Assembly: GCA_937948705.1 (NCBI GenBank)
Contig: CALECF010000050.1
Location: 1-30,727 of the forward strand
Origin: an uncultured Anaerosolibacter sp.
GTDB lineage: Bacteria > Bacillota_A > Clostridia > Peptostreptococcales > Thermotaleaceae
Direction: 5' to 3'
DNA length: 30,727 nt
This document shows, piece after piece, positions 1 through 10,390 of this stretch. Under the pieces are notes generated by a model. The model had not been told where the DNA came from and ran no database searches. It saw only the letters and a program-made list of their open reading frames with translations. Position numbers and translations under genes: made by a program. Numbering within the stretch: the first letter of the stretch is position 1; each line of letters opens with the position of its first letter.

Positions 1-1
1 C

Positions 2-412
2 TTCAACGATTTGATGCAGCTCATTGAGAGCACCAGTCCAAATCTCAACATCATTCTTCAAGAATTCATCACGGACAGCTATGGTAGAGATTTGCGGGTG
101 TTCACCATCGGTGGCAGAGCAGTTGCATGTATGGAAAGAAAATCTGCTGAAGGGGGCTTTAAAGCCAATTTTTCTGCAGGTGGTGAGGTTCGAGAATATC
201 CATTAACTCCTGAAATTGAATGGCTTGCCACAGAAGTTTCTAGAACCTTAGGGCTTGAAATTGCAGGTGTAGATCTGCTGTTCCACGGCGATCATTTCAA
301 GATCTGCGAGGTGAACTCGTCTCCGGGCTTTGAAGGTTTAGAACGGTGTTGTCAAGTAGATATTCCCAAAGAAATATTTCACTATTTAAATATCCGTCTA
401 GGTACATTTTAA
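2..412 (+). CDS. RimK-family ATP-grasp ligase, C-terminal part (cut by window edge)
   Basis: The reading frame is open from base 2 and its start lies outside the window, so only about 136 C-terminal residues are visible. They form the second half of an ATP-grasp domain of the RimK/LysX type, which joins an amino acid to a carboxylate by an acyl-phosphate intermediate using ATP and Mg. The strand LQEFI, the charged segment GRDLRVF, GVDLL and the metal/ATP-binding EVNSSPGFEGLE near the end are hallmarks of RimK-like alpha-L-glutamate ligases. The substrate cannot be told from this fragment. A TTG-ATG pair at 11-16 is internal to the domain and is not the true start. It is convergent with the ykuK-like gene, with a strong hairpin between them, and it lies on the lagging strand relative to the origin. 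Family call is firm; exact function is open. Confidence 0.85.
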   Translation, partial: FNDLMQLIESTSPNLNIILQEFITDSYGRDLRVFTIGGRAVACMERKSAEGGFKANFSAGGEVREYPLTPEIEWLATEVSRTLGLEIAGVDLLFHGDHFKICEVNSSPGFEGLERCCQVDIPKEIFHYLNIRLGTF

Positions 413-420
413 TCGTTTAT

Positions 421-472
421 GATAGCCTTCTTGTATGAATACAAGAAGGCTATCTATATCATATAGATAGCC
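421..472. terminator. Two overlapping inverted repeats between convergent genes
   Basis: Bases 421-435 pair perfectly with 440-454 (15-bp stem, 4-base loop). The right arm shares bases 448-454 with a second perfect stem, 448-459 with 461-472. Only one of the two can form at a time. The position between convergent stop codons suggests a bidirectional terminator, but neither side has a clear T-tract. Confidence 0.6.
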
Positions 473-479
473 TCCATAA

Positions 480-962
480 TCACCCTACGCTACTCCCCCG
501 CTTTGATAGCTTATCTGCGATTCCTGTGGACGCATAAGATTCTGGCTTAATACGGCATTTGAAACCTAATGCTCCTACCCAGCCTGCAATTTCTTTCACT
601 AAGCATTTCGTGTCTCCACCTTCTCCAATGTCCACATGAACCTCCATGGTGGCGTCGATTTCGTTCTTTTCAATAAATTCCATAACCTTGGCTGCCAATT
701 CAAGACTATATTGGGTCTCTGCAAATATTTTCTGGCGAAGATCCTTAATCATTTTTAGTTTTTTTATGTCATAAAAAAAGATGCCGCCCTTCGATTTACG
801 TACCAAAGTAATAACAGAAACCATTTTTGTAACCCCTCCATAGCTTTGGGAGTCCGTTCCAATAGAAACAATATATTCACTTTGTATATCTGTCTTTGTG
901 TATTCTTTGATTTTTTGACACACTTCTCGAAAACTTAGTTCTCCATAAGTGATACTTTTCAT
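480..962 (-). CDS. ykuK: YkuK family (DUF458) RNase H-like protein
   Basis: A protein of about 160 residues matching the YkuK/DUF458 family, a predicted RNase H-fold nuclease group of Firmicutes with no settled role. Visible features are the N-terminal strand with IGTDSQS (an acidic residue on the first RNase H-like strand), a second acidic strand VHVDIGEGGDTK in the middle, and a C-terminal YASTGIADKLSKR segment typical of the family. The start is taken at the ATG at 962, eight bases after GGGAGG. A GTG three codons upstream overlaps the ribosome site and is less likely. It is a single gene with its own upstream gap and is not obviously in an operon with the EAL gene at 1120. The family call rests on recalled sequence pattern; biochemical function is unproven. 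Confidence 0.75.
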   Translation of the reverse strand: MKSITYGELSFREVCQKIKEYTKTDIQSEYIVSIGTDSQSYGGVTKMVSVITLVRKSKGGIFFYDIKKLKMIKDLRQKIFAETQYSLELAAKVMEFIEKNEIDATMEVHVDIGEGGDTKCLVKEIAGWVGALGFKCRIKPESYASTGIADKLSKRGSSVG

Positions 963-1119
963 CCAATACACCTCCCAGCACTTTTATTAAACATTATATT
1001 TATAGGATACTCATTTCGAGATATTTATATTGAAGGTATTTAAACCTTAAGTTAATTCTTCATAGAAATGATCATGGTTATATGAGTATCTGATTACACC
1101 TTTTTCCTATGTTTAACCT

Positions 1120-2901
1120 TTACTCATTGGCTTCTCCTATAATATAGTTACTTTCCCAGCATGCCTTGCATTTTTTCTTAATTTTGCTGGCATACTCTGC
1201 CAATTTTGATGCACTTTCAAAGTTATTAAACCGGTTTGTAACAACTGCAATAGACATACTCATCAATGGGAACTTTTCAATGACACAATGTCGATTTTCA
1301 GCCATGATGTATCCATTTTTCCGGTCTATCTCTGAATAAAAATCTAGGATTTTCTTATTAAACTTTTCAATGATTGCTTCACACAGCTTGTGAATCTGAT
1401 GACTCTCCACAATGGCTACGAAATCATCTCCTCCTATATGGCCTAAAAATCCCTCGTGAAAATCAAGGGCTTTCATTCTCTGTTCTATAAGTCCTGCAGT
1501 CATCTCGATTATCTTATCTCCATTGTCAAATCCATAGACATCATTGTAGGGCTTAAAATTATCCAGGTCAAAATAGAGTACTGCATATTTCTTGTTTGAC
1601 GAAATCATATTACTTATCTTTTGTTCAATCAATATATTACCGGGCAACCCTGTTAGAGGGCTCGCATATTTAGCACGTTCCAATTGGATTTCTGTTGTTT
1701 TTTGCAACAAATCCTTAACAGAAACAATTCCATGATATTTATTATCCCTCGTTATGATAATGTAATCATACAAAGCATCTGTATTTCTCATCATCGCAAT
1801 TTCGGAGACTCGGTCCAAAGGTGTATCATAGTCTATAATCAATGGCGACTTATCCATTAGTCGTTCCATACCTCTTTTCATAAAAATAGCATATCCATAT
1901 TGCTTTCCTAAATGATAATAAAAACTGTGCTTCATGAGCAATCCAACGGGTTTATCTTTATCTATTACAGGAAGACCTTGTATCTCCACATTCTTTTCAA
2001 ATAATAAATTCACATGGGCTCCTAAAGTATCTAATCCTATATGTGGTGTAATCTTACTGATTTCGCCGATTTTCATAATAGAAATATTTCGTAACCTTAT
2101 GTCTGGTTTTGTAAGATTCCTTTTTACAATATGTGATTTTATATTGGGATGTATATTAAGAATTTCAGAAGAGGGCCTTTGGATATAATATCCTTGTCCA
2201 TAATGAATACCCAAATCGATCAACACATCCAGTTCCTCGCTATGCTCAATGCCCTCTGCAATTAGTTTAGAATTTGAATGATTACAAAACTCCACAAATG
2301 ATTTTAAAAGAGCTTGTTTTAAAGGATTCTTATGTATATCCCGAATCAACTCCATATCAATTTTCATATATAAGGGTTCTGCGTTAATGAGTAAATTTAA
2401 CCCTGAGTATCCCTTTCCTACATCGTTTATGGCAATATCTAACCCTATATCCTTATACTTTTGTAAAGTATCGCAAAATCGTTTATAATCTTGGATACAG
2501 GTGTGTTCTGTAATTTCATATACAATATAATTCGATCCCGCTTCCCTGGATAAAACAAGATCGTCCAGTAAGCATTCACCCTCCTTATCATTTTCAAAGC
2601 AAAAAGGGTCAATATTTAAAAACAATTTTACACAGTCCGTTTTCTTTTGAAATTTTCTTATGGCATCTAGCTTACAGATTCTCTCTAACTCAACAATCTT
2701 TCCATAGGTTCTAGCCATATCAAATAATACCTTTGGTTCCTCATAGGTCGTACCTTTCGGTCCTCTACATAGAGCCTCATATCCTAATACACTACCATCC
2801 TTTAAAGAGATGATAGACTGAAATACATTCTCTATATCTTCGTTGGCAATAATTTTTTCTAATTTCTTATAGTTCAAAAAATCAATATTGTTATCGCTCA
2901 T
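1120..2901 (-). CDS. EAL-CBS-GGDEF cyclic-di-GMP signalling protein
   Basis: A soluble protein of 593 residues with an EAL domain (about 15-255), a CBS pair (about 270-405) and a C-terminal GGDEF domain (about 415-590); no membrane segments are seen. EAL domains hydrolyse c-di-GMP and GGDEF domains make it; CBS pairs usually bind adenine nucleotides. The EAL part keeps EALCR, the Asn in FLNIDP, the Glu of EITEHT, the Lys of MKIDM and the Glu of AEGIEH. The usual DDFG metal-binding motif reads NDVG (about residue 159), so phosphodiesterase activity is doubtful. The cyclase site is GGDDF with an intact FDLDNFKPYND metal strand and no RxxD inhibitory site at the usual spacing, so cyclase activity is plausible. 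The start is the ATG at 2901, preceded by GGAG; a longer ATG at 2919 has no ribosome site. It is a paralogue of the next gene upstream. Confidence 0.9.
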   Translation of the reverse strand: MSDNNIDFLNYKKLEKIIANEDIENVFQSIISLKDGSVLGYEALCRGPKGTTYEEPKVLFDMARTYGKIVELERICKLDAIRKFQKKTDCVKLFLNIDPFCFENDKEGECLLDDLVLSREAGSNYIVYEITEHTCIQDYKRFCDTLQKYKDIGLDIAINDVGKGYSGLNLLINAEPLYMKIDMELIRDIHKNPLKQALLKSFVEFCNHSNSKLIAEGIEHSEELDVLIDLGIHYGQGYYIQRPSSEILNIHPNIKSHIVKRNLTKPDIRLRNISIMKIGEISKITPHIGLDTLGAHVNLLFEKNVEIQGLPVIDKDKPVGLLMKHSFYYHLGKQYGYAIFMKRGMERLMDKSPLIIDYDTPLDRVSEIAMMRNTDALYDYIIITRDNKYHGIVSVKDLLQKTTEIQLERAKYASPLTGLPGNILIEQKISNMISSNKKYAVLYFDLDNFKPYNDVYGFDNGDKIIEMTAGLIEQRMKALDFHEGFLGHIGGDDFVAIVESHQIHKLCEAIIEKFNKKILDFYSEIDRKNGYIMAENRHCVIEKFPLMSMSIAVVTNRFNNFESASKLAEYASKIKKKCKACWESNYIIGEANE

Positions 2902-3170
2902 TTTATTCACTCCATACAATTCATTGTGAAATTAGGAATTCAGTCCTAGTTACTTTCATTATATAGATATAACTTTTATATGTAGTTAAAATTATGTAAA
3001 TTTTATGACATTTTTTAGTGCAGGCACCTTATTGTTTAAGTTAAAGAATTATTATTCAGTATTTCTCAAAACCTAGACTTAATCTATGGGGCTTTACAAA
3101 GAGCAGACAGCCTCACAGACAAAGACATGAATTACGCAGATTAAAAGTATCTCATTCCTACATAAAGTGC
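2902..3170. other. Intergenic region between the two EAL genes, no gene seen
   Basis: AT-rich upstream region of the EAL-CBS-GGDEF gene. With the neighbouring terminator it makes a gap of about 330 bases. A TATAAT-like string occurs on the minus strand near 2960 without a convincing -35 box. The stretch around 3085-3150 is less AT-rich than its surroundings, but I could not assign it. No ORF, RNA gene or riboswitch core was recognised. Confidence 0.5.
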
Positions 3171-3212
3171 AAAACAGAAGTTCAAGGTTTTATGCCCTAT
3201 CACTTCTGTTTT
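3171..3212 (-). terminator. Intrinsic terminator of the EAL-CBS gene
   Basis: A 10-bp perfect stem (3171-3180 with 3203-3212) lies just downstream of the EAL-CBS stop codon on the minus strand. The 3' arm ends in TTTT. The loop is long (22 bases), so efficiency is uncertain. Confidence 0.6.
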
Positions 3213-3231
3213 ATTAAATCGACACCAATAA

Positions 3232-4473
3232 TCATACCACCGGTTGTTGGAAATCTTCTTTTCGATCATTCAATACAGTTAACAGTTTCCTTACAGATAC
3301 AATACCATAATATTTATTATTTTGGATTACTATAAGATAATCGTAAATATTGCTATCACTTCGCGCAGTGGCTTTTCTACATGCCTCTTGCACAGAAGTA
3401 GAATAGTCAAGAATAAGAGGATTCTTTTCCATAATCTTTACAATACTTTCTTTTAGAAATTCTTCGCTCTTTGATCTCAATGAAATTTCCAGATCTAACT
3501 TTGATTTCATAATAAGTCCAACAGGCTGTGTTTGATCACACACTACTAAGCCCTGTAGATTCTGAATGTTCTGCAAAGCCTCGTTGACCTGTCCAATGGA
3601 GCTAGTCGTTTCTATTGTTTTGTCAATTCTTGCAATTTCTCCTATCTTCATTTCATATAAAAACGTTTCAGTCTTAATCTTTAACTGGTGTCTTGAGATG
3701 ATCTTTTCTTTTACTTGCTGGCTGATTGAAGTAAATTCAGCAGCCGGTCTCTGAAAAAAATATCCCTGTCCATACTGTACGCCTATATCAATTAAGGTGT
3801 TTAACTCATTGACCGTCTCAATTCCTTCCGCAATCAGTTGCATATTGGTGATCTTCGCAAAAGAGTAGAAAGTTTTCATGAGTTCCTGCTTAATGCTTTC
3901 CTTATCAATATCTCTTACCAATGACATGTCAATCTTTATGTATTGAGGGCGGGTTTCTGTCAAGAGTCTTAAACCAGAATAACCAGCACCTGTATCGTCT
4001 ATTGCAATCTTATATCCTTGACTAATATAGTTATCGATTGTCTTTCTGAAGCTTTTGTAATCACTAACAGCTGTTTTCTCTGTAATCTCAAATATAATAT
4101 TACTAGGATTCATTCCAAACTTGGAAATACACTCTTTTGTGGACCCTTTCTTGAATTTTCTATCCTTTATAATCTCTGGATTTACATTTATAAAAAGTAA
4201 TTTACCCGGTGGTAGCTCCCTTGCGTTTTCCAATGCCTTTGTTCTACAGAGTAGCTCTAGTTCCCAAAGACGGTTGAAGTGTTCGGCTGCATCAAATAGA
4301 TTTCCAGGGGACTCAAAAAAAGAATCGCGGGGTCCTCTGCTTAATGCTTCATATCCTAAAATATGACCGTCATCCAATCTTACAATGGGTTGATAGACTG
4401 TTCTGATGGATTTATTCTTTAAAATCTGTATCAATTCATTATAATTACAAATATTTTTTGCTGCCATACTCAC
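3232..4473 (-). CDS. EAL-CBS cyclic-di-GMP phosphodiesterase
   Basis: A 413-residue protein with an EAL domain (about 20-255) followed by a CBS pair (about 270-400). It ends right after the CBS pair, at the point where its downstream paralogue continues into GGDEF. All the usual catalytic positions are present: Glu42 in YEALSR, Asn in INVNPE, Glu in FEITEKT, Asp159-Asp160 in IDDTG, Lys in YIKID, Glu in IAEGIE, and YGQGYFFQRP. It is therefore predicted to be an active phosphodiesterase that linearises c-di-GMP to pGpG, with the CBS pair as a probable nucleotide sensor. The start is GTG at 4473, about six bases after AGGGGATG; the ATG two codons in is a less well spaced alternative. No transmembrane segments are seen. 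The tandem arrangement with the EAL-CBS-GGDEF gene points to duplication and divergence. Confidence 0.9.
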   Translation of the reverse strand: MSMAAKNICNYNELIQILKNKSIRTVYQPIVRLDDGHILGYEALSRGPRDSFFESPGNLFDAAEHFNRLWELELLCRTKALENARELPPGKLLFINVNPEIIKDRKFKKGSTKECISKFGMNPSNIIFEITEKTAVSDYKSFRKTIDNYISQGYKIAIDDTGAGYSGLRLLTETRPQYIKIDMSLVRDIDKESIKQELMKTFYSFAKITNMQLIAEGIETVNELNTLIDIGVQYGQGYFFQRPAAEFTSISQQVKEKIISRHQLKIKTETFLYEMKIGEIARIDKTIETTSSIGQVNEALQNIQNLQGLVVCDQTQPVGLIMKSKLDLEISLRSKSEEFLKESIVKIMEKNPLILDYSTSVQEACRKATARSDSNIYDYLIVIQNNKYYGIVSVRKLLTVLNDRKEDFQQPVV

Positions 4474-4640
4474 AGTTTCATCCCCTATAGTTCATTATTT
4501 TCATATTCATTATATATCACTTTTACTTATCTCCATGTTATAAATATGTTAAATTATGGAGAAATTTGTCGTTGATTTTTTTCTTTATTTATACATGTTT
4601 CTGCTTTCAACTTTATTTTTTACAAGAAAAGTATTCCATG

Positions 4641-4668
4641 AAAAAAAAAAGGCTTTCTAGAAGCCTTT
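4641..4668 (-). terminator. Intrinsic terminator of the HAD-family gene
   Basis: Stem 4648-4655 with 4661-4668, a five-base loop, and on the minus strand a run of about ten T (A-run at 4641-4650). It follows the HAD gene stop at 4682 closely. Confidence 0.9.
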
Positions 4669-4681
4669 CGTTCATCTTTAT

Positions 4682-5272
4682 TTAAGCAATCTTTGTTGAC
4701 TTTTCATTTGAACTTGCAATATATTCCTCTATAAACGTATAGACCTCTTTCCAATCATAGACCCTTGTTATTCCTGGAATTAGCGGTAGTCGATTATAGT
4801 TACAGTCCATTAATAGTACTTCAAAACCAGCTAATGCCAGTTGAATTGCATTTTCATATCTGTCCTCTATAAAAATGTTACAGCTCAATTTCTTTGCTTG
4901 ATTTACCTTATAATGACTTCCTAGCAAATACAGTTCTCCTTGGGGTAGTTCATTTCTATGGAACCATCCTTTGGTTACCTCTTCTAACGTCTTTTCCCTA
5001 GCAGTAATATAATAAAGATTATGCTCTTGATTTAACTTCCAAAGGATTTCTTTTGCGTTCTGCCGTAAATCCGCCTGGGCATGGATTTCCTCACCATACA
5101 TTTCATAAAATTTCAAATAGGTTTCTCTTGGTATTTTTAATACTTCGTGAATATCATAGACTTTCACTTCAGAAGGCTGTATGTTCTTTTCAAAGTATCT
5201 GTTAGCAATGTCCAACCAATAATATGCTCCTGTGATGGTGCCATCAATATCAATACATATATTTAATTTCAT
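4682..5272 (-). CDS. HAD-superfamily nucleotidase-like hydrolase (NT5C/YqfW type)
   Basis: A 196-residue cytosolic hydrolase of the haloacid dehalogenase superfamily. Motif I is IDIDGT, with Asp8 as the nucleophile and Asp10 as the acid/base. Motif II is YYITAR with its Thr. The acidic motif IV appears as FIEDR late in the chain. The size and the helical cap inserted between motifs I and II fit the NT5C/YqfW group related to 5'(3')-deoxyribonucleotidases; the substrate is not readable from sequence. The start is ATG at 5272, preceded by GGAGAG. The gene stands alone, ends in a strong terminator and diverges from the response regulator gene. No link to c-di-GMP signalling is visible. Confidence 0.8.
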   Translation of the reverse strand: MKLNICIDIDGTITGAYYWLDIANRYFEKNIQPSEVKVYDIHEVLKIPRETYLKFYEMYGEEIHAQADLRQNAKEILWKLNQEHNLYYITAREKTLEEVTKGWFHRNELPQGELYLLGSHYKVNQAKKLSCNIFIEDRYENAIQLALAGFEVLLMDCNYNRLPLIPGITRVYDWKEVYTFIEEYIASSNEKSTKIA

Positions 5273-5882
5273 TAAGTATACATCTCTCCTTCCGAATTTA
5301 TATCTCTATTGTATAACTTCATCTTTAATTACAAATTAAAACCGTATTAATTTATTGTTAAGGTTTATTGTTAAAATTAGATTTTTTTTCTATAAGACTC
5401 ATACATTTCCTAGACTTATAATTATAGTCGCAGACTAATTCCTTAACAATTCTTATTGATTAGATTAAAACTTACTTTATTCAGTTTGGTATCAATAATC
5501 TTATCTGTCTCAGATTTGATATTCCGTTAGATTACTTTGTAGAATAGGAGTGGGGCTTCAAATCATCCCCAAAAGCTGTTTAGTATCTATCAATTCATCC
5601 ATATAAATCTGCTGCTATGAGGTAGATAAATTTGTTATTGGAAAACTTAACGAAAACTTTACAAAATTTGATAGTTTTTTAAATTCCAAAGAGTTATGTT
5701 AAATATATGATAATCATATGAGATTTAAATAAATTTAACTTAGAGAAATTTGGTATTTAGGAAAGCATATTACTGTAAGTAATCTATACACACAATGTAA
5801 TAACAACCTTTTCTCATATGGAATAACAGGAAGAATGGCTAGGATTCTGTAGCTAGTATAGCACCTAAAGAGGAGTGGTCTT
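5273..5882. other. 610-bp divergent intergenic region, no gene seen
   Basis: A very AT-rich region separating the HAD gene (minus) from the response regulator (plus), and presumably holding promoters for both. An 11-bp direct repeat TTTATTGTTAA occurs at 5351-5361 and 5364-5374, spaced 13 bp start to start, and could be a regulator site. A weak -35/-10 candidate (TTTACA, 16 bp, TAAATT) lies near 5660-5690. The stretch from 5440 to 5640 has no ORF or RNA that I recognise and may hold decayed sequence. Confidence 0.5.
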
Positions 5883-6578
5883 ATGAGTAGAAAAAAGGCA
5901 CTTGTTGTAGATGATGAGCATCATATTTCGGAATTAATTCAGTTTAACTTAGAGAATAGCAATTTTGATGTTTTGATCAGTGACAATGGTGAAGATGCTA
6001 TCAGAATTGCAGAAGAGCAGACACCCGATGTAATTATACTTGACTTAATGTTACCCGGAATAGATGGGTTTGAAGTATGCAAAAGAATTAGAAGTAGCGA
6101 GAAATCAAGGAAAATACCTATCATTATGTTAACAGCAAAAGGAGAAGAGTTAGATAAGATACTAGGCTTAGAACTTGGAGCAGATGACTATCTTACCAAG
6201 CCTTTTAGCGTAAGAGAGCTGATAGCCCGAATTAAAGCTGTATTACGAAGATTAGAAGATGTACCTAATCACATGACAAAAAAAACTATACAGATTCATG
6301 ACGTTTTTATTGATACAGAAAAGCATGAAGTATATAAAAATGGGAAACTGGTTGAGCTAACTTTAAAGGAATTTGACTTATTACGCATTTTAGCTGAAAA
6401 CAGAGGTAAAGTATTGTCTAGAAATCTGTTAATGACTGAAATTTGGGGATATGGTTATTCTGGAGAGACAAGAACGGTAGATGTTCATATTAGATACCTA
6501 AGAATGAAAATTGAAGATAACGATAGACATCCTATATATATTGAAACAATCCGCGGTGTAGGATATAAATTAAAATAG
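5883..6578 (+). CDS. OmpR/PhoB-family response regulator, kinase partner lost
   Basis: A 231-residue two-component response regulator. The receiver domain (about 1-120) has Asp10-Asp11, phospho-acceptor Asp54 in IILDLMLPG, Thr84 and Lys106 in the TKPF motif, so phosphorylation should work. The winged-helix DNA-binding domain (about 130-231) has the usual EFDLL, the TRTVDVHIRYLR recognition region and the end motif IRGVGYKL. It most resembles the PhoP/PhoB branch that controls phosphate or cell-envelope genes, but the regulon cannot be read here. The start is ATG at 5883, preceded by GAGGAG. A kinase gene should follow; only a 21-codon stub is present, so this regulator is an orphan unless another kinase or acetyl-phosphate feeds it. 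It runs against the main replication direction. Confidence 0.92.
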   Translation: MSRKKALVVDDEHHISELIQFNLENSNFDVLISDNGEDAIRIAEEQTPDVIILDLMLPGIDGFEVCKRIRSSEKSRKIPIIMLTAKGEELDKILGLELGADDYLTKPFSVRELIARIKAVLRRLEDVPNHMTKKTIQIHDVFIDTEKHEVYKNGKLVELTLKEFDLLRILAENRGKVLSRNLLMTEIWGYGYSGETRTVDVHIRYLRMKIEDNDRHPIYIETIRGVGYKLK

Positions 6579-6587
6579 GGGCAGAAA

Positions 6588-6653
6588 ATGAGAAGAAGAA
6601 GTATTACTTCTTTAAACTTAGTCAGTGCAAACTTAAATTTTAGCTGTTTTTAG
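6588..6653 (+). pseudogene. Probable stub of the partner sensor kinase gene
   Basis: Nine bases after the response regulator stop, an ATG follows an AGGGG ribosome site, as expected for a coupled histidine kinase gene. The frame runs for only 21 codons, beginning MRRRSITSLN, and then stops. What follows is noncoding sequence and IS21 debris. The kinase identity is inferred from position alone, because the peptide is too short to match. Confidence 0.5.
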
Positions 6654-6766
6654 GATAAAATTACTGGTTCGTTAAGCATACATTTTTCCGTACAGTCTAA
6701 TTGACCCTCGTTCTAAATCATATATATGAACTTCTGAATGTTTACACCAATTTCTTGATAGACTCA

Positions 6767-6790
6767 GAGCCATCGAGATATCGATGGCTC
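6767..6790. terminator. Perfect 10-bp hairpin beside the IS21 remnant
   Basis: Bases 6767-6776 pair perfectly with 6781-6790 around a GATA loop, just past the istB remnant stop on the minus strand. There is no T-tract, so it may be a terminator or part of the element end. Confidence 0.45.
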
Positions 6791-6800
6791 AAATAACTTT

Positions 6801-7075
6801 CTAAAGTTTCTTTGCTCCATGTTTCTTTCTCATGGAATCGCCAGAGATATGGATCATGTATGAATTGTGCGCAATTCTGTCAAGTACAGCATCAGTGATT
6901 GTTCCTACAAGCAACGTTACCCAAGACGCAACCTAAGTAAGTTTTTCCACTACCTGAAGCACCTGTGATGATCGCATTGAGCCTATCAAACATAAAACTA
7001 CCTGTAGCCAAAGATAGAATTTGACCCTTGTTGATTTAACGATCATGGGAATAATCAATATCTTCTACACAAGAT
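6801..7075 (-). pseudogene. istB: istB remnant (IS21 helper ATPase), internally deleted
   Basis: Read on the minus strand, this holds an IstB-like stretch with VEDIDYS, a stop codon, then the Walker A loop GASGSGKTYL and GNVACRNN. It then jumps directly to the C-terminal part with AVLDRIAHNSYMIHISGDSM and a stop at 6801-6803. Walker B and roughly 100 residues between Walker A and the C-terminal helix are missing, and there is a frame change at the junction (about 6900). IstB is the AAA+ helper of IS21 transposition; this copy cannot work. Confidence 0.85.
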
Positions 7076-7099
7076 TCTCTAAATCAAAAACCCGCCTTA

Positions 7100-7343
7100 C
7101 TAACATACCGCACCACGAACATACCCCTGAGAGGAATCAGTAACAGGTTGCTTAAGTTCATCTTTGGTAAGCTTGTCTTGACCAGTTTTCAGGATGGATT
7201 CAATGTTTTTGTAACCGGGCCGTGTTGTATACTTAAGTGCTCGAATACAAGCATTCTCTATCCTTATGGCAGAGTATTTATCTGCTAGCTTAAGCAACCC
7301 AAAGCAAGATTTGTAAGCTTGTTGCTCTACCTTGTAGTTTTTT
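7100..7343 (-). pseudogene. istA: istA remnant (IS21 transposase C-terminus)
   Basis: About 80 residues of the IstA C-terminal region are readable without a start, including QAYKSCFGLLKLADKYS, ACIRALKY and the terminal GYVRGA. This is the non-catalytic tail; the DDE core and the helix-turn-helix domain are absent. The 5' break falls at about 7343, right at the T-tract of the HD-GYP terminator, which marks one boundary of the deletion. Confidence 0.8.
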
Positions 7344-7380
7344 AAAAAAGAGATTATTTATCCTCATATAAATAATCTCT
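7343..7380 (-). terminator. Terminator overlapping the HD-GYP stop codon
   Basis: A 12-bp inverted repeat AAGAGATTATTT/AAATAATCTCTT spans the last codons of the HD-GYP gene and is followed on the minus strand by a run of T. Coordinates are good to within a base or two. Confidence 0.8.
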
Positions 7381-7960
7381 TTTCTTCTTCTACAATGCAT
7401 ATATTCCTATATTGATTTTCCACCCATTGCTCAAATGCATTAAATACATTTTTATCATATTTATTTTTTTCGCTATACATAATATTTAGTGTTTCATCAA
7501 TTCTATATGCTTGCCTATATTCTCTATTTGAGCTTAAAGCATCAAAAATATCAGCTATTACTATTATTTTTGACTCTAATGGAATTTGATCTCCTTCCAA
7601 GCCAAAATATCCACTTCCATCTACTTTTTCATGATGATAAAGAATAATATTTGAATATTTTCCTAAAGTATTAGATGTTTTGACAATTTGACTACTATAA
7701 AATGCATGCTTCTTTATCTCACAGAATTCTTCATCTGTTAGTTTTCCTTTTTTATATAGTATGGAATTTTCTATCCATGCCTTTCCATAATCATGGATCA
7801 TACCAGCAACTGATACCTCTGTCTTTTGTGAATTAGACAATCTTAATATATCAGCAATATCATAAGCTATCTTAGAAACACGATACCCGTGTTCAATTAC
7901 ATCAAATGGAATTTTTAATTCGTGTTTATATTCGGATGCAATAATGGCTTCATTAAACAT
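7364..7960 (-). CDS. HD-GYP domain cyclic-di-GMP phosphodiesterase
   Basis: A 198-residue protein that is essentially a stand-alone HD-GYP domain, a class of metal-dependent phosphodiesterases that degrade c-di-GMP. Visible motifs are the first His in IEHGYRV, the HD pair with Lys in IHDYGK, KKHA, the paired His in YHHEKVDGSGY and IADIFDAL. The signature GYP reads GYF here, a substitution in the c-di-GMP-associated loop, while the metal ligands look complete. No sensor domain is attached. The start is ATG at 7960 with GGGGAGG six bases upstream; the frame overlaps the end of the preceding HD gene by 8 bases, implying translational coupling. The pair lies downstream of a c-di-GMP riboswitch, so its expression is probably set by the molecule it degrades. 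Confidence 0.88.
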   Translation of the reverse strand: MFNEAIIASEYKHELKIPFDVIEHGYRVSKIAYDIADILRLSNSQKTEVSVAGMIHDYGKAWIENSILYKKGKLTDEEFCEIKKHAFYSSQIVKTSNTLGKYSNIILYHHEKVDGSGYFGLEGDQIPLESKIIVIADIFDALSSNREYRQAYRIDETLNIMYSEKNKYDKNVFNAFEQWVENQYRNICIVEEEKRLFI

Positions 7961-8264
7961 ATTGCACCTCCCCTAACAAATTATCTAGCAGCGTACTAAC
8001 ACTATTTGCAATTCTGTAAATTGCTTGATTTATATTTGTTTTAAATAGTGTATATAATCTAAAGATATCCACATCATGAAGATGCCCTGCTATTTCCATC
8101 TGGATTACTTGTTGATGATTAATACCCATGTGGGAAGAGAATTTCCCACAAAGCTTTTCTACTTCATTACAGTGTTCAAAGGTATAAGGATCTTTTATGT
8201 GGATTACTGCCGTCAAGGCTTGCAATACCCCTTTGACCAATGAGAGCGATTTTTCTTCCTCCAT
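7953..8264 (-). CDS. Short, degenerate HD-domain protein
   Basis: About 103 residues resembling only the N-terminal half of an HD-GYP domain: VIHIKDPYTFEHCNEVE supplies the first His and AGHLHDV the HD pair. After that it loses the usual GK and continues into an unrelated helical tail. It lacks the HH and GYP motifs, so catalysis by itself is unlikely. The ATG at 8264 is chosen because GGGG sits eight bases upstream; an in-frame GTG at 8273 overlaps that site. It is the first gene behind the c-di-GMP riboswitch and overlaps the HD-GYP gene by 8 bases. It may be a regulatory partner of the HD-GYP protein or the leftover of a tandem-HD protein broken by deletion. Confidence 0.65.
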   Translation of the reverse strand: MEEEKSLSLVKGVLQALTAVIHIKDPYTFEHCNEVEKLCGKFSSHMGINHQQVIQMEIAGHLHDVDIFRLYTLFKTNINQAIYRIANSVSTLLDNLLGEVQYV

Positions 8265-8313
8265 GCTATACACCCCTATCCCCAGCCTAATGATCTAAAT
8301 ATCCCCTTTTTAG

Positions 8314-8360
8314 AAAACAAAAATCCTGCTTATAGATCGATAAAGGCCTCTATAGCAGGA
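8314..8360 (-). terminator. Riboswitch expression-platform terminator
   Basis: On the minus strand, just after the c-di-GMP aptamer, TCCTGCTATAG can pair with its near-complement CTATAAGCAGGA (one bulge), followed by a T-rich tract (complement of 8314-8323). It lies about 50 bases before the start of the first HD gene. Its loop contains nine bases complementary to the 5' edge of the aptamer. Confidence 0.82.
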
Positions 8361-8370
8361 GTATTCTCTT

Positions 8371-8466
8371 ACTATCTATCGTGGCAGCCTGGCAATCATC
8401 GTCTCATCAACCTTAGACCCATAGCTTTGCGTCCTTATCTTTCAATAAGTTTGCCTTTATCACACC
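8371..8466 (-). promoter_or_regulatory. Class I cyclic-di-GMP riboswitch (GEMM-I) aptamer
   Basis: The minus strand carries the GEMM-I core in order: GGCAAAC, a short hairpin capped by a GAAA tetraloop (CTTATTGAAAGATAAG), GGACGCAAAGC, then a GGGTCTAAG arm, and GCCAGGCTGCC closing near the 3' end. These are the conserved ligand-binding and tetraloop/receptor elements of the class. The aptamer is followed by a terminator and then by the HD and HD-GYP genes, so c-di-GMP probably controls read-through into the enzymes that destroy it. Whether binding turns the genes on or off is not decided by sequence alone. Confidence 0.93.
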
Positions 8467-8509
8467 TATTCACTTTTCATACCTGTATAAACAATTTCCA
8501 TCTTTAGCT

Positions 8510-8538
8510 ATTTTACCAATCGTGTAAAATTTTGTCAA
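8510..8538 (-). promoter_or_regulatory. SigA-type promoter of the riboswitch/HD-GYP transcript
   Basis: On the minus strand TTGACA (complement of 8533-8538), a 17-base spacer and TAAAAT (complement of 8510-8515). This places the RNA start near 8503, giving a leader of about 240 bases that contains the whole aptamer and terminator. Confidence 0.8.
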
Positions 8539-9840: not shown

Positions 9841-9904
9841 TCAGTCTTATCTCATTATTTACTTTATTCCCATGCTGTTTCAAAACAATAAATGAGAAAA
9901 TAAA

Positions 9905-9941
9905 AAGAACCCCTCTTTTACTCTAATCCCCTAGGAGTTCT
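9905..9941 (-). terminator. Probable terminator of the 61-residue ORF
   Basis: Arms AGAACCCCT (9906-9914) and AGGAGTTCT (9933-9941) pair with one mismatch, followed on the minus strand by TTTTTATTTT. It lies just past the stop at 9967. Confidence 0.7.
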
Positions 9942-9966
9942 GGTCTATTTAAAATCATTCATAAAC

Positions 9967-10152
9967 CTAAATATTGAAATTCTTTAAAATACGATAAAAC
10001 AGGCTTCTGTTTTTCCTCTTTTCTTCATATTTTCTTTCGATTTCTTCCCGATCCCTCATTCGAATAACGTAACTATCTACCCTGCTTACATAATGATGCC
10101 CAATGGATGCTTCCTCACTCCAATATCGACGCTTAACATCTACCTTTTCCAT
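9967..10152 (-). CDS. Small, highly charged hypothetical protein (61 residues)
   Basis: Not recognised. The protein is rich in Arg, Lys and Glu, with a middle stretch rich in REEIERKYEEKRK that is likely helical, and no membrane segment or Cys motif. Evidence that it is real: an ATG at 10152 with GAGGGTGG at proper spacing, a terminator just after its stop, and no larger overlapping frame. It sits alone between the liv operon terminator and the palindromic repeat. A nucleic-acid or protein-binding role would be a guess only. Confidence 0.55.
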   Translation of the reverse strand: MEKVDVKRRYWSEEASIGHHYVSRVDSYVIRMRDREEIERKYEEKRKNRSLFYRILKNFNI

Positions 10153-10349
10153 ATGTAATCCACCCTCTTTTACTTGTCTTTATATGATATTTTCGCTATT
10201 TAAAGAAGGTTTCCTTTAAGTTTTTATAGACAAATTCCTTGATATATCAACATTTGAGTAGATTTATGCAGTTTTATGTCTAAGTGGTTTTTTCTACCTA
10301 TTTCCTGGGAAATGGACATATTTCTCTGTTTTATTCTTTGAATATCCCT

Positions 10350-10382
10350 AAAAAACAAGAACCAGAGATTTCTCTCTGGCTC
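10350..10382 (-). terminator. Terminator of the liv operon
   Basis: On the minus strand AGCCAGAGA pairs with TCTCTGGTT around a four-base loop and is followed by CTTGTTTTTT. It ends just downstream of the livF stop at 10391. Confidence 0.88.
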
Positions 10383-10390
10383 CCTCATTT

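What the first reader, a model, noticed from the sequence alone, without database searches (positions are those of the whole stretch)
7364..8538. c-di-GMP riboswitch in front of the enzyme that destroys c-di-GMP
A full GEMM-I aptamer with consensus promoter, terminator, and then a short HD gene and an HD-GYP gene form one unit. The sequence shows all parts directly; the class I ligand is known for this aptamer family. The inference is a feedback loop: the messenger controls its own phosphodiesterase. Riboswitch control of turnover enzymes is known, but this small stand-alone HD-GYP with a degenerate partner gene is unusual.
Basis: partly seen in the sequence, partly recalled or inferred. Interest (0 to 1): 0.72.

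Follow-up and report, generated by a model that had tools for sequence, protein, structure and literature searches.

The report
Riboswitch-controlled HD-GYP gene, enzyme swapped
A known type of RNA sensor for the bacterial messenger c-di-GMP sits in front of a gene for an enzyme that probably destroys that messenger, and probably shuts the gene off when the messenger is abundant; the sensor's original enzyme gene is cut short here and a different gene of the same class follows it.

Summary
The best Rfam model is the GGC variant, but the window has A where that model has G.

The 'degenerate partner' is a stump. In three related genomes the same leader precedes an intact 194-198-aa HD-GYP gene; DNA similarity to the window stops inside that gene, at 8069. 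A low-GC, different HD-GYP gene (7364-7960) follows; its homologs in two relatives lie elsewhere, with no c-di-GMP aptamer found nearby.

Pairing predicts an OFF switch: the aptamer's 5' strand can pair with the terminator loop as antiterminator in all four leaders (one bound-state proxy disagrees). The feedback would then be positive (double negative), not homeostatic. Nothing was tested at the bench.

c-di-GMP riboswitches before turnover genes are known; 15 of 84 aptamers found in the family precede one. New member of a known kind, with a 5'-strand antiterminator and an enzyme replacement.

The parts
8510..8538 (-). sigma-70-type promoter: TTGACA (8538-8533), 17 nt, TAAAAT (8515-8510)
   Evidence: same hexamers and spacing in L077, L079 and L080
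8379..8464 (-). class I c-di-GMP (GEMM-I) aptamer; best model RF03167 c-di-GMP-I-GGC; core bases G (position 20), A (47), C (92) in recalled Vc2 numbering
   Evidence: 69.1 bits, E 1.4e-14; RF03167 and RF01051 consensus compared; base readout
8453..8462 (-). 5' strand of the predicted antiterminator (TGATAAAGGC), part of the aptamer's ligand-pocket strand
8338..8347 (-). 3' strand of the predicted antiterminator (GCCTTTATCG), in the terminator loop
   Evidence: core GCCTTTATC identical in the 3 orthologous leaders
8314..8360 (-). intrinsic terminator hairpin (8360-8324) and U-tract (8323-8314)
   Evidence: aligned with orthologs
8069..8273 (-). N-terminal piece of the original riboswitch-controlled HD-GYP gene (HD-GYP1); alternative ATG start at 8264
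   Evidence: 91% identical to P0002 over 54% of ORF1; DNA matches to G395 and G351 stop at 8069
7953..8068 (-). tail of ORF1, not aligned with HD-GYP1; GC 0.267
7364..7960 (-). ORF2: complete stand-alone HD-GYP domain gene (HD-GYP2, 198 aa); its ATG overlaps the ORF1 stop; GC 0.28
7346..7383 (.). perfect 16-bp inverted repeat at the end of ORF2, probable terminator
   Evidence: I2
6606..7340 (-). decayed transposon-like remnant beside the insert; the reading as IS21 istA/istB is recalled, no family search was run on it
   Evidence: broken frames on the minus strand

Best explanation
A class I c-di-GMP riboswitch acting as a transcriptional OFF switch controls a small stand-alone HD-GYP phosphodiesterase. 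With little c-di-GMP, the terminator-loop strand (8347-8338) pairs with the aptamer's 5' strand (8462-8453) as it emerges, which opens the ligand pocket, blocks the terminator and lets polymerase read into the HD-GYP gene. With much c-di-GMP, the ligand locks the 5' strand into the aptamer, the terminator forms and less phosphodiesterase is made, so c-di-GMP rises further: a double-negative, that is positive, loop. In the ancestor the controlled gene was HD-GYP1. In the window lineage HD-GYP1 was broken after its HD motif, and a different, low-GC HD-GYP gene (HD-GYP2), next to a transposon-like remnant, took its place behind the same leader. Shown by sequence: the parts, orthologous leaders with an intact enzyme, the breakpoint, and the complementary strands. 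Inferred: ligand identity, OFF direction, enzyme activity, the foreign origin of HD-GYP2 and the order of events.
For: Aptamer match and canonical core bases. Orthologous loci in three genomes with the same neighbour (polyprenyl synthetase), promoter, aptamer (87.2, 83.1, 84.1 bits by RF01051), terminator and an intact HD-GYP gene. Complementarity of the aptamer 5' strand to the region down to the end of the terminator is at the floor of the test (p 0.005, 200 shuffles) in all four leaders; 5 of 57 terminator-bearing leaders reach p<=0.01. RNA folding: antiterminator helix probability 0.98-1.00 in all four when its strand has just emerged, terminator 0; with aptamer helices enforced and the 5' strand held, terminator 0.84, 0.995, 0.985 and 0.24 in window, L077, L079 and L080. 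Class I switches are reported as OFF in C. difficile (PMC11477304, passages; Cd1 in PMC9262584, passages). Breakpoint at 8068/8069; ORF2 GC 0.28; HD-GYP2 homologs in L072 and L073 with no c-di-GMP aptamer at gathering score in about 3.5 kb each. ORF2 keeps the conserved HD-GYP residues and its model (pLDDT 89.5) matches HD-GYP crystal structures first.
Against: No base pair of the antiterminator covaries across the four leaders: its 9-bp core is invariant and only the outermost pair differs (T-A in L077, T-G in the others). The fold result depends on the proxy for the bound state: holding both outer strands of the aptamer without enforcing its helices gives terminator 0.07 in the window, 0.99 in L077, 0.43 in L079 and 0.04 in L080. 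In L079 terminator and antiterminator are about equal in the full-length free RNA (0.45 and 0.50). L080 stays at 0.24 even with the aptamer enforced. GYF replaces GYP in ORF2, and its catalysis is untested. The HD-GYP2 homologs in L072 and L073 have GC 0.375 and 0.362, so they are not the direct source of the window copy. The junction could be an assembly error.
Confidence: 0.68

Rival explanations
1. The riboswitch is an ON switch: c-di-GMP prevents termination and induces the phosphodiesterase, giving ordinary negative (homeostatic) feedback.
For: It is the more intuitive wiring; a closely related aptamer fold acts as ON switch in the cGAMP-sensing pilM element (PMC9262584, passages).
Against: The terminator and the aptamer use separate sequence and can coexist, while the antiterminator cannot coexist with the pocket. 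The aptamer's 3' strand pairs only weakly with the terminator region in the four leaders (duplex -5.9 to -7.0 kcal/mol against -14.2 to -16.1 for the 5' strand). None of 42 tested leaders looked ON-like in either strand test, though most showed no change and so say nothing.
Confidence: 0.13
2. The rearranged operon is a decaying relic: the riboswitch still works, but HD-GYP2 landed behind it by chance and its regulation has no function.
For: ORF1 is broken, a decayed transposon-like remnant lies next to the insert, and the insert has a low GC content.
Against: Promoter, aptamer, antiterminator and terminator are intact, ORF2 is intact with its motifs, and its start overlaps the ORF1 stop, which suits translation from the same message.
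Confidence: 0.3
3. The contig is chimeric at 8068/8069, so the riboswitch and HD-GYP2 were never neighbours.
For: The two sides have different nearest relatives: genes between 1120 and 6578 are 89-94% identical to G351 over the parts that align, genes to the right of 8617 77-88% to G351 and 80-90% to G395. No whole genome is held for the window.
Against: Window 1-1016 is again G395-like at 84%, so a two-piece chimera does not explain it. The chimeric ORF1 product and the ORF2 product are each listed on 2 contigs, though these may be copies of one assembly.
Confidence: 0.13
4. The aptamer belongs to the GGC variant and senses something other than c-di-GMP.
For: Best Rfam match is RF03167.
Against: The window has A (GACGCAAAGC) where the RF03167 consensus has G (GACGCGAAGC); RF01051 has A. 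The three ortholog aptamers match RF01051 best at 83.1-87.2 bits. Base 20 is G; in one cGAMP riboswitch an A20G change switches selectivity to c-di-GMP (PMC6456294, passages).
Confidence: 0.05

Closest known systems
Cd1 class I c-di-GMP riboswitch of Clostridioides difficile (flagellar operon)
   Same: Class I aptamer, transcriptional OFF logic, terminator compatible with aptamer, antiterminator that unfolds the ligand pocket (PMC9262584 and PMC11477304, passages).
   Different: Cd1's antiterminator pairs with the aptamer-stabilising strand on the 3' side (its pairs involve C87 and G86); here the predicted one uses the 5' strand. The target is an HD-GYP gene, not flagellar genes.
E. coli PdeL, a c-di-GMP-repressed phosphodiesterase
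   Same: Expression of a phosphodiesterase is inhibited by high c-di-GMP, described as positive feedback (PMC5052742, passages). Same circuit sign as predicted here.
   Different: PdeL regulates its own transcription as a DNA-binding protein (EAL class recalled); here an RNA does the sensing and the enzyme is HD-GYP.
c-di-GMP riboswitches before c-di-GMP turnover genes (GEMM genes)
   Same: Many GEMM-associated genes relate to production, degradation or signalling of c-di-GMP (PMC7266159, passages); here 15 of 84 family aptamers (8 HD-type, 1 EAL, 6 GGDEF).
   Different: The window case has a second, different HD-GYP behind the stump of the first one.
PmGH (4MCW), HD-GYP phosphodiesterase with a tri-nuclear metal centre
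   Same: Top structural match of the ORF2 model (E 3.4e-9, TM-score by query 0.70) and sequence match at 3.8e-26.
   Different: ORF2 is little more than the HD-GYP domain (198 aa against a 369-residue chain) and has GYF for GYP.

Membership tests
c-di-GMP-I riboswitch aptamer (RF01051 and clan CL00126) | covariance-model score above gathering | tested here: met
   69.1 bits to clan member RF03167; one lower-scoring same-clan match suppressed. The RF01051 score of the window itself was not printed.
c-di-GMP-I riboswitch aptamer (RF01051 and clan CL00126) | G20, A47, C92 ligand-contact bases (Vc2 numbering, recalled) | tested here: met
   AAAGGCAAAC, GACGCAAAGC, CTGCC in the window
c-di-GMP-I riboswitch aptamer (RF01051 and clan CL00126) | binds c-di-GMP | not testable with these tools
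   needs in-line probing or ITC
c-di-GMP-I-GGC variant (RF03167) | G at the A47 position (GACGCG; reading of the name recalled) | tested here: not met
   window has A; the alignment shows the mismatch to consensus G
3',3'-cGAMP riboswitch (GEMM-Ib) | A at position 20 | tested here: not met
   window has G
transcriptional OFF riboswitch | antiterminator that excludes the bound aptamer, terminator compatible with it | tested here: met
   computed only, and dependent on the bound-state proxy
transcriptional OFF riboswitch | ligand lowers read-through | not testable with these tools
   needs in vitro transcription
HD-GYP phosphodiesterase (ORF2) | HD_5 domain and H, HD, H, HH, D metal-ligand residues | tested here: met
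   HD_5 5.6e-31; H24, H56 D57, H85, H109 H110, D137 invariant or nearly so in 22 sequences; metal roles recalled
HD-GYP phosphodiesterase (ORF2) | GYP motif | tested here: not met
   GYF here; GYF in P0004 and GYY in L072 and L073; GY itself invariant
HD-GYP phosphodiesterase (ORF2) | hydrolyses c-di-GMP | not testable with these tools
   enzyme assay needed
HD-GYP phosphodiesterase (ORF1) | complete HD-GYP domain | tested here: not met
   similarity to HD-GYP1 stops after HDV; the later conserved residues are absent

The most novel reading that the evidence does not exclude
A one-gene bistable switch made of RNA and enzyme: c-di-GMP represses its own phosphodiesterase through an OFF riboswitch with a 5'-strand antiterminator, and the wiring, not the particular enzyme, is what selection kept, because after the resident HD-GYP was broken a foreign HD-GYP was retained behind the same leader.
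Probability: 0.25. Interest if true: 0.66.

Novelty: new member of a known kind. Interest (0 to 1): 0.42.

Why it matters
If the OFF logic holds, the locus is a compact case of a second messenger blocking its own destruction, a circuit that can hold two stable states and so could commit cells to one life style. A toy model with arbitrary parameters gave three steady states for the OFF wiring in 3 of 14 settings and one for the ON wiring in all 14. It also offers a natural comparison: three relatives carry the intact original enzyme and the window carries a replacement behind a similar leader.

Tried and rejected
ON switch: I looked for pairing of the 3' aptamer strand with the terminator and found only weak pairing in the four leaders. 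GGC-variant ligand: rejected on the A at the diagnostic base. ORF1 as a conserved heterodimer partner: rejected because the three orthologous loci have one intact gene there. The protein search with ORF1 found two proteins among 4 candidates, itself and the 183-aa P0002, but its length limit (1.75 times the query) would hide full-length homologs of 194 aa or more, so that search says little by itself. Source of the ORF1 tail: not found; the genes upstream of HD-GYP2 in L072 and L073 are of other kinds. Mobile-element ends: a repeat search of 6540-8120 gave no convincing terminal inverted repeats or target duplication around the insert. Covariation of the antiterminator: I had only four leaders; a search of 393 genomes of the order gave 4 matches at E<=1e-46, the three known orthologs and one of 43% identity. 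Survey of switch logic in other leaders: 36 of 42 showed no change with the 5' strand held and 35 of 42 with either or both strands held, so the method cannot assign logic to most. Of the other five HD-type leaders, four showed no change and L146 changed only with both strands held. The paper that, as I recall, described the GGC variant (10.1093/nar/gkx699) is not held; one search found three papers naming it, of which I saw passages of one. Searches for print on a c-di-GMP riboswitch before an HD-GYP gene (20 of 28, 20 of 68, 4 of 4 and 2 of 2 papers listed) showed no title or abstract start that describes it. Of the papers listed there I saw passages of PMC5052742, PMC4744006 and PMC6456294, none of the others, and most subscription papers are missing from the library.

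Full report
WHAT IS THERE. All parts lie on the minus strand. A promoter TTGACA-17-TAAAAT (8538-8510; 11 of 12 consensus bases) precedes a class I c-di-GMP aptamer at 8464-8379 (RF03167, 69.1 bits, E 1.4e-14). A hairpin at 8360-8324 with a U-tract at 8323-8314 follows. Then come ORF1 (8273-7953, 106 aa; ATG alternative at 8264) and ORF2 (7960-7364, 198 aa), whose start overlaps the stop of ORF1. A perfect 16-bp inverted repeat within 7346-7383 closes the unit.

THE APTAMER. The highest-ranking model is c-di-GMP-I-GGC, not the main family RF01051. The RF03167 consensus reads GACGCGAA at the junction after the second helix and RF01051 reads GACGCAAA. The window reads GACGCAAA. With G in AAAGGCAAAC and C in CTGCC it has the G20/A47/C92 set of the c-di-GMP pocket (Vc2 numbering recalled). 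The three orthologous aptamers match RF01051 best with 87.2, 83.1 and 84.1 bits; the RF01051 score of the window was not printed. In one cGAMP riboswitch an A20G change switches selectivity to c-di-GMP (PMC6456294, passages). I take the ligand to be c-di-GMP; this was not measured.

THE PARTNER GENE IS A STUMP. A protein search with ORF1 returned itself and a 183-aa HD-GYP protein, 91% identical over 54% of ORF1 (longer homologs are outside that search's length limit). In genomes G329, G351 and G395 the same polyprenyl synthetase, promoter, aptamer and terminator are followed by an intact HD-GYP gene of 194-198 aa and then a convergent gene, a DUF2600 protein by Pfam in the G395 copy, the one tested. 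DNA matches between window and G395 or G351 run from the right to 8069 and stop there, inside this gene; G329 matches to about the same place at the translated level. ORF1 keeps the sequence up to HDV and lacks the later conserved residues.

THE REPLACEMENT. ORF2 is a different HD-GYP gene (32-37% identical to the HD-GYP1 orthologs). Its closest relatives are the G. ferrireducens protein (58%) and genes in G405 (57%) and G329 (49%). In those two genomes it sits beside a gene like that for YdjM (Pfam run on the G405 copy) and no c-di-GMP aptamer reached gathering score in the 3.5 kb fetched. ORF2 has GC 0.28 and the ORF1 tail 0.267; neighbouring genes have 0.33-0.35 to the left and 0.37 to the right. 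Of 28,556 overlapping windows of the insert's size elsewhere in the contig, 285 are as low. The homologs in G405 and G329 have GC 0.375 and 0.362, so the low GC points to another donor. A decayed transposon-like remnant fills 6606-7340 (IS21 label recalled). Further left, pieces of 1029-6605 are collinear with G351 contig C45, at 87-93% in the four longer pieces and 80% in one short one; G351 lacks part of the first EAL gene. So a rearrangement or insertion broke HD-GYP1 and put HD-GYP2 behind its leader. A chimeric contig is not excluded; 1-1016 being G395-like again (84%) argues against a simple two-part chimera.

IS ORF2 A WORKING ENZYME. HD_5 matches at 5.6e-31. H24, H56-D57, K60, H85, H109-H110-E111, D114 and D137 are invariant or nearly invariant in 22 aligned sequences; GYP is GYF. 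The AlphaFold2 model (pLDDT 89.5, pTM 0.85) matches PmGH, DvhD and PA4781 HD-GYP domains first. By sequence the best solved chain is a cGAMP phosphodiesterase (1.8e-27), PmGH close behind (3.8e-26), so substrate choice is open.

HOW IT PROBABLY WORKS. The strongest complementary pair in the leader is 8462-8453 with 8347-8338: the aptamer's 5' strand, including the pocket G, with the loop of the terminator (-12.8 kcal/mol). Its 9-bp core is identical in the three orthologs, so there is no covariation to support it. Of 85 leaders tested (84 family aptamers plus the window) 57 have a terminator-like hairpin; the 5'-strand complementarity reaches p<=0.01 in 5 of 57, namely the window, its three orthologs and one other. 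When the loop strand has just been made, the antiterminator helix has probability 0.98-1.00 in all four; in the full-length free RNA it is 0.999, 0.999, 0.50 and 0.999 (window, L077, L079, L080). With the aptamer helices enforced and the 5' strand held, terminator probability is 0.84, 0.995, 0.985 and 0.24 in the same order. Against this, holding both outer strands without enforcing the helices gave 0.07, 0.99, 0.43 and 0.04. On balance the design fits an OFF switch, as reported for class I switches in C. difficile (PMC11477304, passages). Cd1 uses the aptamer's 3'-side strand for its antiterminator (PMC9262584, passages), so use of the 5' strand is a difference. An OFF switch on a phosphodiesterase makes c-di-GMP protect itself: positive feedback, as described for PdeL in E. 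coli (PMC5052742, passages). A toy model allowed three steady states for OFF in 3 of 14 settings and one for ON in all 14 (arbitrary parameters).

HOW COMMON. In the 16 genomes of the family of G329, 15 hold 84 aptamers at E<=1e-6; in larger genomes only the first 148 candidates were scored, so 84 is a lower bound. The first same-strand ORF of 60 aa or more downstream, picked by script, is HD-type for 8 of 84, EAL for 1 and GGDEF for 6 (Pfam on the 80 distinct ORFs gives HD 8, HD_5 5 and GGDEF 6). The HD-GYP1 locus is in 3 of 393 genomes of the order, plus a 43% match in a fourth. [quoted passage not shown] another that many GEMM-associated genes relate to production, degradation or signalling of c-di-GMP (PMC7266159, passages). 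This is a new member of a known kind with an unusual history.

SIDE FINDING. All six GGDEF-gene aptamers carry A at position 20, while six of eight HD-type ones carry G (Fisher p 0.0008 for GGDEF against the rest, not corrected for relatedness; 3 of 85 aptamers with unreadable base dropped). This hints that cyclase genes here may answer to a different or second dinucleotide.

Noticed in passing
84 aptamers of the family of G329 (in loci L077, L079, L080 and L138-L207): Class I aptamers split by base 20: A in all 6 before GGDEF genes, in 2 of 8 before HD-type genes and in 19 others; A20 is the cGAMP-type base, so part of this regulon may sense cGAMP.
   Followed up: partly
L080, between the terminator and the HD-GYP1 start (about 2095-2280): G395 has well over 100 nt of extra sequence, with an inverted repeat seen by eye, between terminator and gene that the other leaders lack; no Rfam match at gathering score there.
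   Followed up: no
window 9889-10390: About 500 nt conserved in G395 (inside an 83.9% DNA match) with only short ORFs such as 9967-10152 (61 aa); Rfam gave one match far below its gathering score.
   Followed up: partly
window 1120-4473; L225 1271-1765: An EAL-CBS-GGDEF and an EAL-CBS gene lie near the riboswitch unit; the first is cut short in G351.
   Followed up: no
window 5883-6578; L225 4376-5068: A response-regulator gene without a neighbouring kinase ORF, next to the rearranged stretch; the G351 copy also has no adjacent kinase ORF.
   Followed up: no
L202 (G405:C1:2316800-2325400), L192, L194: Several class I aptamers lie within a few kb of each other in these loci (4, 3 and 3 of the 84); their genes were not matched to domains one by one, but the tally of all targets includes 10 transglutaminase-type proteins.
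   Followed up: no
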